This document shows, piece by piece, positions 20,371 to 42,896 of a DNA stretch of 64,000 nt (position 1 is the stretch's first letter; every line of letters starts with the position of its first letter). The notes below the pieces were generated by a model that did no database searches, was not told where the DNA came from, and saw only the letters and a list, made by a program, of their open reading frames with translations. Source of the stretch: an uncultured Tateyamaria sp. (GTDB taxonomy: Bacteria > Pseudomonadota > Alphaproteobacteria > Rhodobacterales > Rhodobacteraceae); NCBI RefSeq assembly GCF_947494755.1, contig NZ_CANLVZ010000002.1, positions 248,001 to 312,000 on the forward strand, read 5' to 3'. A program made the position numbers and the translations under genes.

Positions 20371-20835
20371 ATGCAAGACCCGACCCAAAGCGCACATGAG
20401 ATATCCGAGCATTTGCTCGAACGGACCGGCAATGCGATCATGTCCGACCGGTTCCCCGACTTCCTCGCCTGCTTCGTGCTGCCCTACCACATCGAGACGC
20501 TCGAAAGCTCACAGCTCATTTCAACGGCGCCCGATATGGAGGCGACGTTTCGGGCCGTGCGCGCGCACCTCACCACGCACAGCATCACGCTGATGGCGCG
20601 CCATTGCGTCAGCGCCAGCTTTCGCAGCGAGACCGAGGTGGCGGCAACTCATGAAACCCGGTTGATCAGTCGCGGGGTGCTGGTGCAGCAACCCTACCCC
20701 ACATTTTCGCTGATCCGGCGCGGGTGGGATAAGAAATGGCGCATTGCGCACTCATCCTATGTGATCGTGGATTCCGACCCGTTGAATGCGGCACTGGCAC
20801 CACATCCTCAGCCCGCGCGCAAAACGGCCACATAG
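20371..20835 (+). CDS. hypothetical protein, NTF2/SnoaL-like
   Basis: A 154-residue soluble protein. The pattern of an N-terminal helix pair ([20 protein letters not shown]), a strand with IETLESSQL and a C-terminal curved sheet ([35 protein letters not shown]) fits the NTF2-like cone fold, but no catalytic residues can be named. The start at 20371 is the first that gives a natural N-terminus; an upstream in-frame ATG at 20317 is possible. Its last 28 bases overlap the convergent cmk gene. It probably forms its own unit downstream of trpA. Confidence 0.65.
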
Positions 20836-21431
20836 TCAACTGCGGCCGCAACCGCCGCCTTGATCGTCAGCTCAGAGGTATCAAGCACCAAAGCCCCCTC
20901 TGCGGCACGCAAAGGTGCCGCCGCACGCGCACTGTCGCGCGCATCACGGGCTTCGACATCGGCCAGCACGTCCTCGTAAGGGCTGTCATCGCCGCGTGCC
21001 TGCAACTCTTTCCACCGACGTTCTGCACGCACGGGTGCACTGGCAGTGACAAACAGCTTGGCCTCGGCTTGGGGGCAAATCACCGTCCCGATGTCGCGCC
21101 CATCGAGCACCGCGCCCCCGGCCCGACGCGCAAAGGCGCGTTGGAAGTCGAACAAGGCATCCCGCACCTCCTGGATCACGGCGACCTTGCTGGCGGCTTG
21201 TGCCACCTCGGCGGTGCGCAAAAGTGGATTCTCCAGCGCGGTTTGGTCCAGTGCACGCGCAGCAGCGACCGGCTCGACCCCATCCAGCACCTGCGCCCCG
21301 ACCGCACGGTAGAGCAAGCCTGTGTCCAGATGCGCCAGCCCAAACTGCTCGGACACAGCCCGGCTGATCGTGCCCTTGCCCGCCGCCGCAGGGCCATCAA
21401 TCGCCACTGTAAAGGGTTGGGTCGCGTCCAT
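20808..21431 (-). CDS. cmk: cytidylate kinase
   Basis: A 207-residue nucleoside monophosphate kinase. The P-loop is [16 protein letters not shown], the CMP-binding region [12 protein letters not shown] follows, and [13 protein letters not shown] and [13 protein letters not shown] form the rest of the family signature. It makes CDP from CMP. The ATG at 21431 overlaps the aroA stop by one base; a GTG one codon earlier is also possible. In most alphaproteobacteria cmk precedes rpsA and ihfB, but here those genes are 16 kb away. Confidence 0.96.
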
Positions 21432-22777
21432 CACAAACGGCTCAGCTTCGCGCCAAGGCCCGCCATCAGCGGCTCGAAGATCGGGAAAGAGGTCGCAATC
21501 GGGCCACCATCATCCACAGACATCGGGTTCTGGGTCGCCATGCCCATCACCAGAAACGACATCGCGATGCGGTGATCAAGATGGCTGGCGCAGGTCACAC
21601 CGCCGCGTACATTGCCATGGCCCTGCCCGATCACCGTCCACCAGTCCGGGCCGTCCTCGACCCCGACACCAGCCGCGCGCAGCCCATCGGCCATGGCGGC
21701 GATGCGGTCACTTTCCTTGACGCGCAGTTCCTTTACGCCGGGCATATTCGTGTCGCCCTTCGCAAAAGCCGCGACCACAGACAGGACGGGATATTCATCA
21801 ATCATGCTGGCCGCACGCTCGGCAGGCACTTCGATCCCCTTGAGGTCGGGCGAAAAACGTGCGCGCAGGTCGGCCACAGGTTCGCCCCCCTCTTCGCGCT
21901 CATTCTCATAGGTCAGGTCGGCACCCATCTCGCGCAGGGTGGTAAACAGCCCCGCCCGCGTCGGGTTGAGCCCGATCGTGGGCACCAGCACATCCGATCC
22001 GGGCACGATCAGCGCCGCACAGACTGGAAACGCCGCCGAGGAGGGATCGCGCGGCACGTCGATATGCTGCGGCTTCAACTCAGGTCGCCCCTTGAGGGTG
22101 ATCACCCGCCCCTCATCCGTAACCTCTGTGTTGATCTCCGCGCCAAAGCCCGCCAGCATCCGCTCGGTATGATCGCGGGTCGCCTCGGCCTCTGTCACGA
22201 CAGTCTCACCGGGCGCGTTCAACCCTGCGAGCAAGACCGCCGATTTCACCTGTGCTGAGGGGACCGGTACGACGTAACGCGCAGGCACAGGATCAGCAGC
22301 GCCAACGAGCGTCATCGGCAAACGCCCCCCCGCGCGGCCCACAGCCTGACAGCCAAACAGGGCCAGCGGATCGGTCACCCGCGCCATTGGCCGCTTGTTC
22401 AGGCTCGCATCGCCCGTAAATGTCGCCGAAATGGGCGAGGTCGCCATCGCGCCCATGATCAAGCGCACGCCGGTGCCCGAGTTGCCGCAATCAATGACCT
22501 GATCCGGCTCCGCAAAGCCACCGACACCCACGCCGTGAACCGACCACTTGCCGCCACCATGATCAATGACCTCAGCGCCAAAGGCTCGCATCGCCCGGCC
22601 GGTGTCCAGAACATCCTGCCCTTCCAGCAAGCCGGTGATGGTGGTCTCGCCCACAGAGAGCGCACCAAGGATCAAGGCGCGATGCGAAATCGACTTGTCA
22701 CCCGGCACATCGGCAACCCCCGAAAGCGGTGCGCTGGCACCAGATTGCATGGGGATCGGATCACCGTGGCTGGACAT
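21431..22777 (-). CDS. aroA: 3-phosphoshikimate 1-carboxyvinyltransferase (EPSP synthase)
   Basis: A 448-residue enzyme of the shikimate pathway that joins phosphoenolpyruvate to shikimate-3-phosphate. The substrate motif [17 protein letters not shown] is near the N-terminus, with [14 protein letters not shown] at about residue 105, and LRVKESDRI and [12 protein letters not shown] near the C-terminus. In the PEP site the sequence reads GNSGTG, with Ala at the residue four positions after the last Gly, which is a feature of class II, glyphosate-tolerant enzymes; this is suggestive only. The start at 22777 gives the normal length. It is coupled to cmk by TGATG. Confidence 0.97.
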
Positions 22778-37547: not shown

Positions 37548-39224
37548 TTAGTCTTCGGTTTTCAGAGCCGCACCAAGGATGTCGCCAAGCGATGCACCGG
37601 AGTCCGAGGAGCCATACTGTTCCACGGCTTCTTTTTCTTCGGCGATCTCGCGCGCTTTGATTGACACACCCAGACGACGGGTCTTGCCGTCGATATTGGT
37701 GATGCGCACGTCAACCTTGTCACCAACCGAGAAACGCTCGGGGCGCTGTTCGGCGCGGTCACGGCTGAGGTCCGAGCGGCGGATGAAGGATTTCATGCCC
37801 TCATATTCCACTTCGATCCCACCATCCTCGATGGCTGTCACTTCGACCGTCACGATCGAGCCGCGCTTCACGCCGCCCACCGCTTCGGCGAACTTGTCAC
37901 CACCGATGGCTTTGATCGAGAGCGAGATACGCTCTTTCTCGACGTCCACTTCGGACACAACCGCCTGCACCATGTCGCCCTTGCGGTAGTCCTGAATGGC
38001 CTCTTCGCCGCGCTGGTCCCAGCTGAGGTCGGAGAGGTGAACCATGCCGTCGATGTCGCCCTCAAGCCCAACAAACAGACCGAATTCGGTGATGTTCTTG
38101 ACTTCGCCTTCGACTTCGGTGCCCTCGGGGTGCGTTTCTGCAAACACTTCCCATGGGTTGCGCATGGTCTGTTTCAGGCCCAAGGACACGCGGCGCTTGG
38201 CACCATCGATTTCCAAAACCATGACTTCGACTTCCTGGCTGGTCGATACGATCTTGCCGGGATGCACGTTCTTCTTGGTCCAAGACATTTCGGAGACGTG
38301 GACGAGGCCCTCGACACCGGGCTCAAGCTCAACAAAGGCACCGTAATCGGTGATGTTGGTCACGCGGCCTGTGTGGCTGGATTCCAGCGGGTACTTGGCG
38401 GCCACCAGATCCCATGGATCTTCCTGCAGCTGCTTCATGCCCAAGGAGATCCGGTGCGTTTCTTTGTTGATCTTGATGACCTGCACCTTGATCGTCTCGC
38501 CAATCGTCAGGATTTCCGACGGGTGGTTCACACGGCGCCATGCCATGTCGGTGACGTGCAGCAGACCGTCCACACCGCCGAGGTCCACAAAGGCCCCGTA
38601 TTCGGTGATGTTCTTGACCACACCATCGACCGTCTGGCCTTCGGTCAGGTTGCCGATGACTTCGGCGCGCTGTTCGGCGCGGGATTCTTCGAGGATCGCA
38701 CGACGCGACACCACGATGTTGCCCCGGCGGCGGTCCATCTTGAGGATCTGGAAGGGCTGTTTCAGACCCATCAGCGGGCCTGCGTCACGCACGGGGCGCA
38801 CATCAACCTGCGAGCCGGGCAGGAACGCCACGGCACCGCCCAGATCGACGGTAAAGCCGCCTTTGACACGGCCAAAGATCGCGCCTTCGACGCGGGCTTC
38901 GCCGGCATAGGCGGTTTCGAGACGATCCCAGGCTTCTTCTCGGCGTGCCATCTCGCGCGAGATAACCGCCTCGCCCTTGGCGTTTTCAGCCGAGCGCAGG
39001 AAGACTTCCACTTCATCGCCGACGGCGATTTCAGGGGCTTCACCGGGATTTGCGAATTCTTTAAGTTCGACACGGCCTTCCATCTTGTAGCCGACGTCGA
39101 TGATGGCCTGACCCGCTTCGATCGCGAGCACTTTGCCTTTGACAACAGACCCCTCTTCGGGCGTGTCCATTTCGAAGCTTTCTTGCAGGAGGGCTTCGAA
39201 TTCCTCCATCATTTTATCAGCCAT
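37548..39224 (-). CDS. rpsA: 30S ribosomal protein S1
   Basis: A 558-residue protein of six S1/OB repeats; repeats three to six are evident from recurring GAFVDLGGVDGLLHVTD, GAFVELEPGVEGLVHVSE and GLFVGLEGDIDGMVHLSD motifs. It binds mRNA and the 30S subunit to promote initiation. A TAGGAAAACGACGCC stretch lies before the ATG. The length is normal for alphaproteobacteria. In many relatives cmk lies just upstream; here a KAP-type NTPase does. Confidence 0.98.
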   Translation of the reverse strand: MADKMMEEFEALLQESFEMDTPEEGSVVKGKVLAIEAGQAIIDVGYKMEGRVELKEFANPGEAPEIAVGDEVEVFLRSAENAKGEAVISREMARREEAWDRLETAYAGEARVEGAIFGRVKGGFTVDLGGAVAFLPGSQVDVRPVRDAGPLMGLKQPFQILKMDRRRGNIVVSRRAILEESRAEQRAEVIGNLTEGQTVDGVVKNITEYGAFVDLGGVDGLLHVTDMAWRRVNHPSEILTIGETIKVQVIKINKETHRISLGMKQLQEDPWDLVAAKYPLESSHTGRVTNITDYGAFVELEPGVEGLVHVSEMSWTKKNVHPGKIVSTSQEVEVMVLEIDGAKRRVSLGLKQTMRNPWEVFAETHPEGTEVEGEVKNITEFGLFVGLEGDIDGMVHLSDLSWDQRGEEAIQDYRKGDMVQAVVSEVDVEKERISLSIKAIGGDKFAEAVGGVKRGSIVTVEVTAIEDGGIEVEYEGMKSFIRRSDLSRDRAEQRPERFSVGDKVDVRITNIDGKTRRLGVSIKAREIAEEKEAVEQYGSSDSGASLGDILGAALKTED

Positions 39225-39475: not shown

Positions 39476-39538
39476 GGGGCTCCGCCCCCGGCCTTGCGGC
39501 CTCCCCCGCGGTTTATTTGCCGAAATGAAGAAGGATCA
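39476..39538 (+). repeat. GC-rich intergenic repeat, copy C
   Basis: Two small hairpins (GGGGC/GCCCC and GGCC/GGCC), a CCCCCGCGG core and the tail TTTATTTGCCGAAATGAAG ending in GGATCAG. The stop codon of the convergent-facing NTPase gene falls inside the tail. Confidence 0.7.
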
Positions 39539-40918
39539 GACGTCTTTTTCGGTTCCCGCTTGCATCTTATAGACAGCGTCGAGTTTGGCTTCGTGGTCGG
39601 GGATGTAGTGGGGGGCGAGATATTTAGGGACCCGGTGGGATCTGCTTTCATACCGGTTTTCCTGCGGCGCTATCATACTTGCGTGCAAATGGCACATCTC
39701 AGTTAGCTCATTCTGTAAGAGTTGTTGAATTTCATTCATATCAAAGACTTGCTGCCACTCAGATGGTCGGGGAACGGCTCTTTCCAGAAGCTTGCTACAT
39801 CTGGTTGGCGTCAAAGACACTCGCGGCAATTTGGAAGCGAATGCCTTCAGGGTCACCTTATTTTCGGTTGGCGATGCGCTTACAAATGCCATAGCCACCA
39901 GAAGCGGCAGGTCCAACGGCTCATTGCCGTAGCACCGACACGCCAATTCAGCTTTTAGCAGCACCGCCTTTATCTGGCGCATTGAAAGTCCACTTGTCGG
40001 AGCGATTTCACCAGCCAGATTTGCCGCTCTCTCGACCGAGAATTCCTGATGATCACCAAACGGAATCGCCAGCGGCAACTCAAGCGCCAACTGCTCAACC
40101 GCCGCACTCAACTGCTCATCACTCACCGGCAACCCCAGTCGAATATCCACAAACTTATCGAGGTATTTCTCCCCTTCCCTGAACCCGCCAAATCGGTGTG
40201 CGGCGAGGTTTTCCAGATAGTCCGCATTCACAAACAGCACGAAAATGAAGCCGGGATGATCGAACACCAGCTTCATCGCCTCAAGCAGCGCGATGGCGTA
40301 GTCAGGATGGCAGCGGTCCAACTCATCGATGAAGATGATCACGCGGTCACTGTCGCACCCGTCGGTCAAAGCCGCGTGCAGCGCATTGAGTTGATCGGGC
40401 AATTCCTTTTCACGCACCTGCTCGGCAGCGAGTTGTGTCCCGATCAAAGCCGCCGCCTGTTTGGACATGCCGTCACCCAAATCGTTGACGGCAGACTGGA
40501 GCGCGTCAAATCCCTCAATCTGACCATTCAATCCTTCTTCGGCCATCTCGATCAACTCTTCCGCCCCGCTTTTCAGAACGGCGCGCGCGGTTGAACGAAG
40601 CGCGGTCGCGCCCACTCGCTTCGCCGCCTTGAAAACTGTCGCGGCCTGCGCTTCTTGCGATTTGGGCAAACCTCCAACCAACGCGCCCAGAAACGTCACC
40701 ACGGGATCGCCCGAATGATCCGAGCGTTGCGCGTCGATCTCGAACACCAACTCGCCCTGCCCGCGCAGCAAGTCCGCCCATTGCTTGCGAAAATGTGTCC
40801 TGCCGCGCCCGAACCCCGCCTCGATCGAAATGGTGCGGCTGTCGTCAAGCGAGGTGATCAGGTTCGTGTAGGTCTGGGCGAGTTCATCAAACCCGAGCAG
40901 GTCAGCGCTATCAGTCAT
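39536..40918 (-). CDS. KAP-type P-loop NTPase with altered Walker A
   Basis: A 460-residue soluble protein. Walker B is intact (VIIFIDELDRCHPD, residues 193-206), followed by FVLFVNADYLENLAAHRFGG and EKYLDKFVDIRLGLP, which are typical of the KAP family. The P-loop reads GFGRGRT at residues 35-41, so Arg40 (codon AGG) stands where the catalytic Lys is expected. No membrane helices are evident, unlike many KAP members. The C-terminal third (about 39640-39960) is visibly more AT-rich than neighbouring genes. KAP proteins include phage-exclusion factors, but no partner gene is present and the function here is unknown. It sits alone between a secreted protein gene and rpsA. Confidence 0.8.
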   Translation of the reverse strand: MTDSADLLGFDELAQTYTNLITSLDDSRTISIEAGFGRGRTHFRKQWADLLRGQGELVFEIDAQRSDHSGDPVVTFLGALVGGLPKSQEAQAATVFKAAKRVGATALRSTARAVLKSGAEELIEMAEEGLNGQIEGFDALQSAVNDLGDGMSKQAAALIGTQLAAEQVREKELPDQLNALHAALTDGCDSDRVIIFIDELDRCHPDYAIALLEAMKLVFDHPGFIFVLFVNADYLENLAAHRFGGFREGEKYLDKFVDIRLGLPVSDEQLSAAVEQLALELPLAIPFGDHQEFSVERAANLAGEIAPTSGLSMRQIKAVLLKAELACRCYGNEPLDLPLLVAMAFVSASPTENKVTLKAFASKLPRVSLTPTRCSKLLERAVPRPSEWQQVFDMNEIQQLLQNELTEMCHLHASMIAPQENRYESRSHRVPKYLAPHYIPDHEAKLDAVYKMQAGTEKDV

Positions 40919-40974: not shown

Positions 40975-41550
40975 TTAAATCTCTTCGCCCAGTTCTTGGA
41001 GTTCTTTCAACAACTCCTGATAGATCCCGTTGCTGTCGCCGCCCCCGAACACGGTCGCGCCACCTGAATAGGTTTGCCCGTAGGTGCGTGCCACATTGAT
41101 CGTCTGGATGAAGGCCGACAGAAGTTGGTCTTTTTCCAGCGATGACAGCGGGTGGATGAACACACCCCACAGCCGCCCTTGCGCCACTGCGTAGCGCGCG
41201 TCGAGCGCGCTGTCGAAATTGGCCTGCATGAGCCGCATCAGCTCGTCCGCCGCCAGCCCCTCGGCCGAGCGGATCGGCACCATGGCCCGCATTCGATTGG
41301 CGCGCGGGTCAGCGATCACAATGACCGGAATGTCGTCGAGGGTGAACTGGATCGCATTGCCCGCCGCGGATGCCTCGGGATCGATGGCCTGAATGATCTC
41401 GGCCATGCGTGCCATGGTCATGGGCGGTTCCAGCACGACCTCGGGCTCGGGGGGCGGTGCCTCGGGCGTTTCGGTTTGGGACAGGCCGTGGCTGCCCGCC
41501 CCGATCAGCGCGGCGATCAGCAGGACACGGACAGAAAAGAGGCGGGGCAT
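40975..41550 (-). CDS. secreted YbjN-like protein
   Basis: A 191-residue exported protein. The signal peptide is about residues 1-25 (MPRLFSVRVLLIAALIGAG and so on), followed by a short Pro/Glu-rich linker. A compact alpha/beta domain of the YbjN/type III chaperone-like kind spans about 35-140 (MARMAEIIQAI, IQFTLDDIPVIVI, ALDARYAVAQGRLWGVFIHP). The C-terminus is Gly-rich then acidic. The start at 41550 has AAAGG seven bases upstream and is preferred over 41565. The role is unknown; it is probably periplasmic. Confidence 0.7.
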   Translation of the reverse strand: MPRLFSVRVLLIAALIGAGSHGLSQTETPEAPPPEPEVVLEPPMTMARMAEIIQAIDPEASAAGNAIQFTLDDIPVIVIADPRANRMRAMVPIRSAEGLAADELMRLMQANFDSALDARYAVAQGRLWGVFIHPLSSLEKDQLLSAFIQTINVARTYGQTYSGGATVFGGGDSNGIYQELLKELQELGEEI

Positions 41551-41632
41551 GGCAGAACCTTTCATCGGGATGATGAAAAGCTATGCCAGCCCCGCCTCAA
41601 TTTCCAAGCACCGTTTGGTGATCAGTGCGTAA

Positions 41633-41651
41633 GGCGCAGGTGTCCTGCGCC
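41633..41651 (-). terminator. terminator of metK, repeated hairpin
   Basis: The same eight-base-pair hairpin and flanks as after marR (23654), starting two bases past the metK stop. It has no T run beyond TTAC. Confidence 0.7.
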
Positions 41652-41653
41652 CG

Positions 41654-42838: not shown

Positions 42839-42886
42839 TGCTCCATTAATGTGACCCCGTCGCGTCAGGAAGCCGTTGCGACGAGC
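42839..42886 (-). promoter_or_regulatory. SAM/SAH riboswitch in the metK leader
   Basis: On the minus strand a six-base-pair stem (CGTCGC with GCGACG) encloses the loop AACGGCTTCCTGAC. The 3' strand ATTAATGGAGCA follows, and its GGAGC can pair with GCTTC of the loop to form a pseudoknot (one G-U pair). GGAG is also the metK ribosome site, six bases or so before the ATG. This matches the SAM/SAH class known from Rhodobacterales metK leaders: ligand binding would hide the ribosome site and shut off translation. The element fits exactly into the gap between lnt and metK. Confidence 0.9.
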
Positions 42887-42896
42887 GTGGACCCGG

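What the first reader, a model, noticed from the sequence alone, without database searches (positions are those of the whole stretch)
39536..40918. KAP-type NTPase with Arg in place of the Walker A lysine
The P-loop reads GFGRGRT, with an AGG codon where the invariant Lys is expected, while Walker B (FIDELDRC) is intact. A single base change from AAG would explain it. This could mean an ATP-binding but slow or inactive switch, or drift in a lineage-specific gene. The C-terminal third is also AT-richer than the flanks, and the gene sits alone where cmk would normally precede rpsA. KAP proteins include phage-exclusion factors, so a solitary accessory or defence role is possible.
Basis: partly seen in the sequence, partly recalled or inferred. 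Interest (0 to 1): 0.6.

Follow-up and report, generated by a model that had tools for sequence, protein, structure and literature searches.

The report
Lysine-less KAP ATPase beside rpsA
A marine bacterium carries a probable anti-phage ATPase whose key ATP-gripping lysine has become an arginine; the gene belongs to a patchy family that mostly sits just upstream of the ribosomal-protein S1 gene and has a rapidly changing tail, so this copy is probably a crippled member of a real but little-studied defence-like family.

Summary
ORF 39536-40918 (-) encodes a 460-aa KAP-family NTPase with P-loop GFGRGRT (Lys40 to Arg, AGG); Walker B is intact. Of 47 KAP proteins of this bacterial family whose P-loop could be read, 45 have Lys; the only other exception (Gemmobacter, Thr) is a truncated gene. 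The query also has a private Phe42-to-His change. Otherwise it is not degenerate: full length, no long branch, 4 departures at 61 otherwise invariant columns (0-7 in relatives).

The gene is not a random singleton. Twenty-three species carry this orthologue at one locus, the variable interval between cmk (or a ybjN-like gene) and rpsA. It is absent from all 19 other species of its genus, and the nearest sister has an almost empty site. The protein is soluble and matches PADLOC candidate PDC-S20; its closest solved fold is RdrA of RADAR. Its C-terminal third is hypervariable: two Tritonibacter mobilis strains share 94% of the N-module but have strongly diverged C-termini between near-identical flanks.

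Best reading: a phage-defence-like NTPase with a swappable tail, here carrying a missense allele that probably abolishes hydrolysis. Function is inferred, not shown.

The parts
39536..40918 (-). KAP-family P-loop NTPase, 460 aa (PDC-S20-like)
40796..40816 (-). P-loop G35-F-G-R-G-R40-T41; Arg codon AGG at 40799-40801; F42H codon at 40793-40795
40310..40333 (-). Walker B FIDELDRC (residues 196-203), intact
40364..40663 (-). long helical insert between Walker A and B (residues 86-185), low-confidence model, no transmembrane segment
39635..39883 (-). hypervariable C-terminal stretch (residues 346-428)
39566..39634 (-). moderately conserved tail motif LAPHYIPDHEAKLDAV (within residues 429-451)
39476..39508 (.). 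GC-rich motif at the 3' junction of the inserted gene, also present at the near-empty site of sister genome G404
37548..39224 (-). rpsA (30S ribosomal protein S1), downstream anchor of the locus
40975..41565 (-). ybjN-like gene, upstream anchor of the locus in this genus
20808..21434 (-). cmk (with aroA at 21437-22777), the usual upstream anchor elsewhere in the family, relocated in this genome

Best explanation
A soluble KAP-family NTPase (single-gene, PDC-S20 type) that occupies the variable interval upstream of rpsA in scattered Rhodobacterales. By analogy with RdrA, QatA and STAND ATPases it most likely oligomerises with bound ATP, uses its fast-changing C-terminal third to sense or contact an invader, and acts against phage. 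In this species Lys40, which grips the phosphates, is Arg and Phe42 is His. The copy should bind ATP weakly and not hydrolyse it, so it is most likely a functionally crippled missense allele that is otherwise still intact. Shown: sequence, conservation, locus, presence/absence, hypervariable C-terminus, fold similarity by model. Inferred: ATP behaviour, ring assembly, defence role, loss of function.
For: Lys in 45 of 47 readable KAP P-loops; the other non-Lys case (L013, GHGTT) is in a truncated gene. Orthologues break repeatedly: L012 internal stop, L013 frameshifted end, L015 frameshift, G378 remnant. PDC-S20 match in 17/17 orthologues. Closest solved fold is RdrA, Z 16.9, with the next group at 12.6. 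Patchy presence: 0 of 19 congeners, about 10 of 394 genera, near-empty site in sister G404. Conspecific C-terminal swap. Literature: K-to-R in RecA loses ATPase and lowers ATP binding about 3-fold (PMC9769622); Lys to Ala in the Walker A of Avs5 abolishes immunity (PMC12931631).
Against: The rest of the protein is as conserved as in relatives (4 departures at 61 invariant columns, end branch 0.88 against a median of 0.85), so if inactive it became so recently, or it still has a function. All other catalytic residues are kept. No phage or ATP assay exists for this family. The interval itself is not a defence island.
Confidence: 0.5

Rival explanations
1. Functional variant: Arg40 with His42 gives a KAP protein that binds ATP but hydrolyses it very slowly, a nucleotide-locked or slow switch kept by selection.
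For: Conservative Lys-to-Arg change with everything else kept; two changes clustered in the P-loop (P about 0.08 for 2 of 4 departures falling there); full-length ORF with a normal codon-position pattern.
Against: No other intact orthologue has Arg; the clustering is not significant; no close orthologue to show conservation of Arg.
Confidence: 0.25
2. Housekeeping or translation-linked role: the gene stays by rpsA because it acts with ribosomal protein S1, not as defence.
For: At least 23 species keep it at the same locus, same strand, usually directly upstream of rpsA.
Against: Absent from most genera and from all 19 congeners; four to five relatives carry it elsewhere; frequent pseudogenes; hypervariable C-terminus; the interval takes many unrelated cargo genes.
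Confidence: 0.12
3. The change is a sequencing or assembly error, or a rare polymorphism of the one sequenced isolate.
For: Only one genome of the species is held; AAG to AGG is one base.
Against: F42H beside it needs two further base changes; 351-kb contig in a 99.85% complete assembly.
Confidence: 0.08

Closest known systems
PDC-S20 (PADLOC phage-defence candidate, single gene, KAP NTPase)
   Same: Same length class and match over most of the protein, E 3e-43 over residues 6-390; all 17 orthologues match.
   Different: Walker A lysine replaced here; PDC-S20 is itself only a candidate; no paper with the name is held.
RdrA of RADAR
   Same: Best solved fold, Z 16.9 over 270 residues, rmsd 4.0; AAA+-like P-loop core with insertions; RdrA is a heptameric ring (PMC9994260).
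   Different: No RdrB deaminase gene beside it; much shorter; sequence identity about 14%; RdrA keeps Walker A Lys82.
QatA of qatABCD
   Same: KAP NTPase; weak profile match; QatA appears to form 7- or 8-mers and binds DNA (PMC13279940).
   Different: No qatB, qatC or qatD neighbours; 39 bits against a cut-off of 600.
Tmn and PifA (KAP phage-exclusion proteins)
   Same: KAP NTPase core; weak PifA match.
   Different: Tmn is characterised by two transmembrane domains (PMC11846954); none here.

Membership tests
KAP NTPase (Pfam PF07693) | profile match above the curated cut-off | tested here: met
   99.1 bits against 20
KAP NTPase (Pfam PF07693) | Walker A GxxxxGK[ST] | tested here: not met
   GFGRGRT; Lys to Arg; 'KAP homologue' stands, 'active KAP NTPase' does not
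KAP NTPase (Pfam PF07693) | Walker B hhhDExD | tested here: met
   IFIDELDRC
PDC-S20 | PADLOC model match over most of the protein | tested here: met
   3e-43, residues 6-390, profile 19-382 of 464; PADLOC's own score threshold was not available
PDC-S20 | anti-phage activity | not testable with these tools
   candidate system; needs a phage assay
qatABCD (QatA) | NCBIfam equivalog cut-off and qatBCD neighbours | tested here: not met
   39.2 bits against 600; neighbours are rpsA and a ybjN-like gene
Tmn | two transmembrane segments within the NTPase | tested here: not met
   highest 19-residue hydropathy 1.44
RADAR (RdrA) | RdrA fold | tested here: inconclusive
   Z 16.9 on a model of mean pLDDT 75; a shared fold only
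RADAR (RdrA) | adjacent RdrB deaminase | tested here: not met
   flanking genes are rpsA and ybjN/metK

The most novel reading that the evidence does not exclude
A KAP defence NTPase that works with an Arg P-loop as an ATP-locked, non-hydrolysing sensor, within a previously undescribed family that is anchored to the rpsA locus and swaps its C-terminal recognition module by allelic recombination.
Probability: 0.17. Interest if true: 0.65.

Novelty: new variant of a known kind. Interest (0 to 1): 0.42.

Why it matters
The Arg P-loop alone is most likely a crippled allele. The wider finding matters more. It is a candidate single-gene defence family with a fixed chromosomal address (upstream of rpsA), patchy presence, frequent inactivation and a hypervariable, strain-swapped C-terminus. 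That gives natural allele pairs (two Tritonibacter mobilis strains) in which the role of the C-terminal module can be tested, and a natural K-to-R variant to ask whether hydrolysis is needed.

Tried and rejected
(1) P-loop elsewhere in the protein: rejected, alignment and model place it at 35-41. (2) General pseudogene decay of the query: not seen. (3) KAP gene replacing cmk: rejected, cmk is in the window at 20808-21434 and was not found next to rpsA in any congener. (4) The rpsA interval as a defence island: not supported; 94 cargo proteins from other genera and from congeners gave only one-off defence-model hits among metabolic and regulatory genes. (5) Phage origin: no relative in IMG/VR by pattern scan, only distant hits (22-28%) in five records of the phage collection. 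(6) Strict vertical descent with losses: partly rejected; the rpsA-tree pair L004+L145 is rejected for KAP (p-AU 1.6e-11), while the Sulfitobacter and Roseovarius groups agree. (7) Positive selection in the hypervariable stretch: dN/dS 0.19-0.47 there against 0.09-0.12 in the N-module for two close pairs, raised but under 1; in the T. mobilis pair dN and dS are both near saturation, pointing to replacement of a tract by recombination. (8) No solved structure found by sequence. (10) Aravind et al. 2004, the paper that defined the KAP family, is not held.

Full report
Observation. The ORF at 39536-40918 (-) is 460 codons long and begins ATG. Its P-loop is GFGRGRT; codon 40 is AGG (window 40799-40801). 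Pfam PF07693 matches residues 12-269 with 99 bits against a cut-off of 20. It is the only KAP match in its genome.

Is Arg conserved? No. Searches of 394 genomes of the family, of one genome per species in GTDB and of 390 genomes of the order gave about 28 close orthologues (most 42-53% identical to the query) and about 19 more distant KAP proteins. Of the 47 with a readable P-loop, 45 have Lys. Gemmobacter lutimaris (L013) has Thr in a gene whose end is frameshifted. The query also has F42H, private to it. There is no close orthologue, so the age of the change cannot be bounded. The query keeps Walker B, Asn231 (probably sensor 1) and Arg314 (probably sensor 2); those two names are inferred from position. 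It departs at 4 of 61 columns that are invariant in 19 others, within the range of its relatives (0-7), and its branch is not long. This is a lesion in one motif, not a decayed gene.

Where the gene lives. In all 14 orthologues with long flanks the gene lies between cmk and rpsA. Adding L016, G374, G295, G056, a remnant in G378, G525, G444, Tritonibacter mobilis (there on a 1.2-Mb replicon) and the window makes 23 species at the rpsA locus. In some, cmk is not next to it, is inverted or lies outside the stretch read, but rpsA is always downstream on the same strand, usually directly. Exceptions are G161 (beside a gene that reads as pnp and one that reads as rpsO), G481, G482 and G541 (beside a gene that reads as a serine recombinase), and G001, whose cmk-rpsA gap is only 190 bp. 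These belong to one subclade of the tree.

The interval is variable in general. In 80 sampled genera, 70 have cmk within about 11 kb upstream of rpsA. The gap from the nearest core gene (cmk or ybjN-like) to rpsA runs from 145 bp to 7.1 kb (median 1.3 kb), and none of the 80 has this KAP gene there. Cargo is mostly ordinary (aldo/keto reductase, nitroreductase-like, regulators; some of these names are my reading of the sequence), with only stray matches to defence models. So it is a permissive site, not a defence island. Within the window's genus (20 species) only this species has the gene. Sister G404 (rpsA region 96% identical) has about 37 bp in place of the 1.47-kb insert, between a GC-rich motif at 39476-39508 and the end of the ybjN-like gene. 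Other congeners hold unrelated genes there. KAP and rpsA trees agree in recent groups but conflict significantly in one place (p-AU 1.6e-11 for L004+L145), so the gene is partly inherited and at least once exchanged while keeping its address. Recombination through the flanking core genes is my inference.

Architecture. The AlphaFold model (mean pLDDT 75) shows a P-loop NTPase core, a long helical insert of low confidence and a helical C-terminal part. The best solved match is RdrA of RADAR, Z 16.9, then archaeal Orc/Cdc6 at about 12.6. There is no transmembrane segment. PADLOC's PDC-S20 matches 17 of 17 orthologues.

Hypervariable C-terminus. Mean pairwise identity is 60-65% in the N-terminal and Walker B blocks, 33% in the helical insert, 21% in residues 346-428 and 42% in the tail. 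Strains A3R06 and F1926 of T. mobilis share 94% of the N-module but 21% of the C-terminal stretch, while the DNA just upstream of the gene and from the rpsA side on is 96-100% identical. The C-terminal parts remain homologous across the family (weak but significant BLASTP matches), so this is allelic divergence and not fusion to unrelated domains. The pairs L002/L003 and L116/L117 show 93-94% against 61-63%. In the T. mobilis pair dN and dS are both near saturation in the C-terminal stretch, as expected of a replaced tract.

Mechanism. Relatives with known biology are ring-forming ATPases in phage defence: RdrA (PMC9994260) and QatA (heptamer or octamer, DNA binding; PMC13279940). In the STAND defence protein Avs5, changing the Walker A Lys to Ala abolishes immunity (PMC12931631); in RecA, K70R loses ATPase and lowers ATP binding about threefold (PMC9769622). 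The likeliest mechanism for the family is ATP-dependent assembly with recognition through the variable C-terminus (inferred). In this species the Arg most likely leaves a protein that binds ATP poorly and does not turn it over. Frequent broken copies in the family (L012, L013, L015, G378) fit a gene of conditional value, as defence genes often are (general knowledge).

Verdict. The gene is a new member, with a variant P-loop, of a candidate defence family whose fixed locus and swappable C-terminus I did not find described in the papers I could search.

Noticed in passing
L234 5959-7452 and L235 5959-7419 (Tritonibacter mobilis A3R06 and F1926): Conspecific KAP alleles with near-identical N-modules and flanks but strongly diverged C-terminal parts: a natural domain swap.
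   Followed up: partly
window 42839-42887 (-): SAM-SAH riboswitch (RF01727, 57 bits) directly upstream of metK; a known arrangement in Rhodobacterales (general knowledge).
   Followed up: no
window 41628-41653: A stretch of about 25 bp between metK and the ybjN-like gene recurs exactly or nearly so at several places in this genome and in most congeners; a dispersed short repeat.
   Followed up: no
window 20808-22777 (-): aroA-cmk lies 16 kb from rpsA, unlike most of the family, where it is close upstream of rpsA; a rearrangement that the other species of the genus seem to share (no cmk found in the short upstream stretches read).
   Followed up: partly
L103-L109 (seven congeners), interval upstream of rpsA: A conserved three-gene cassette (a hydrophobic protein of about 197 aa, a 106-132-aa possible regulator, a 205-220-aa protein) fills the same interval in seven species of the genus.
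   Followed up: no
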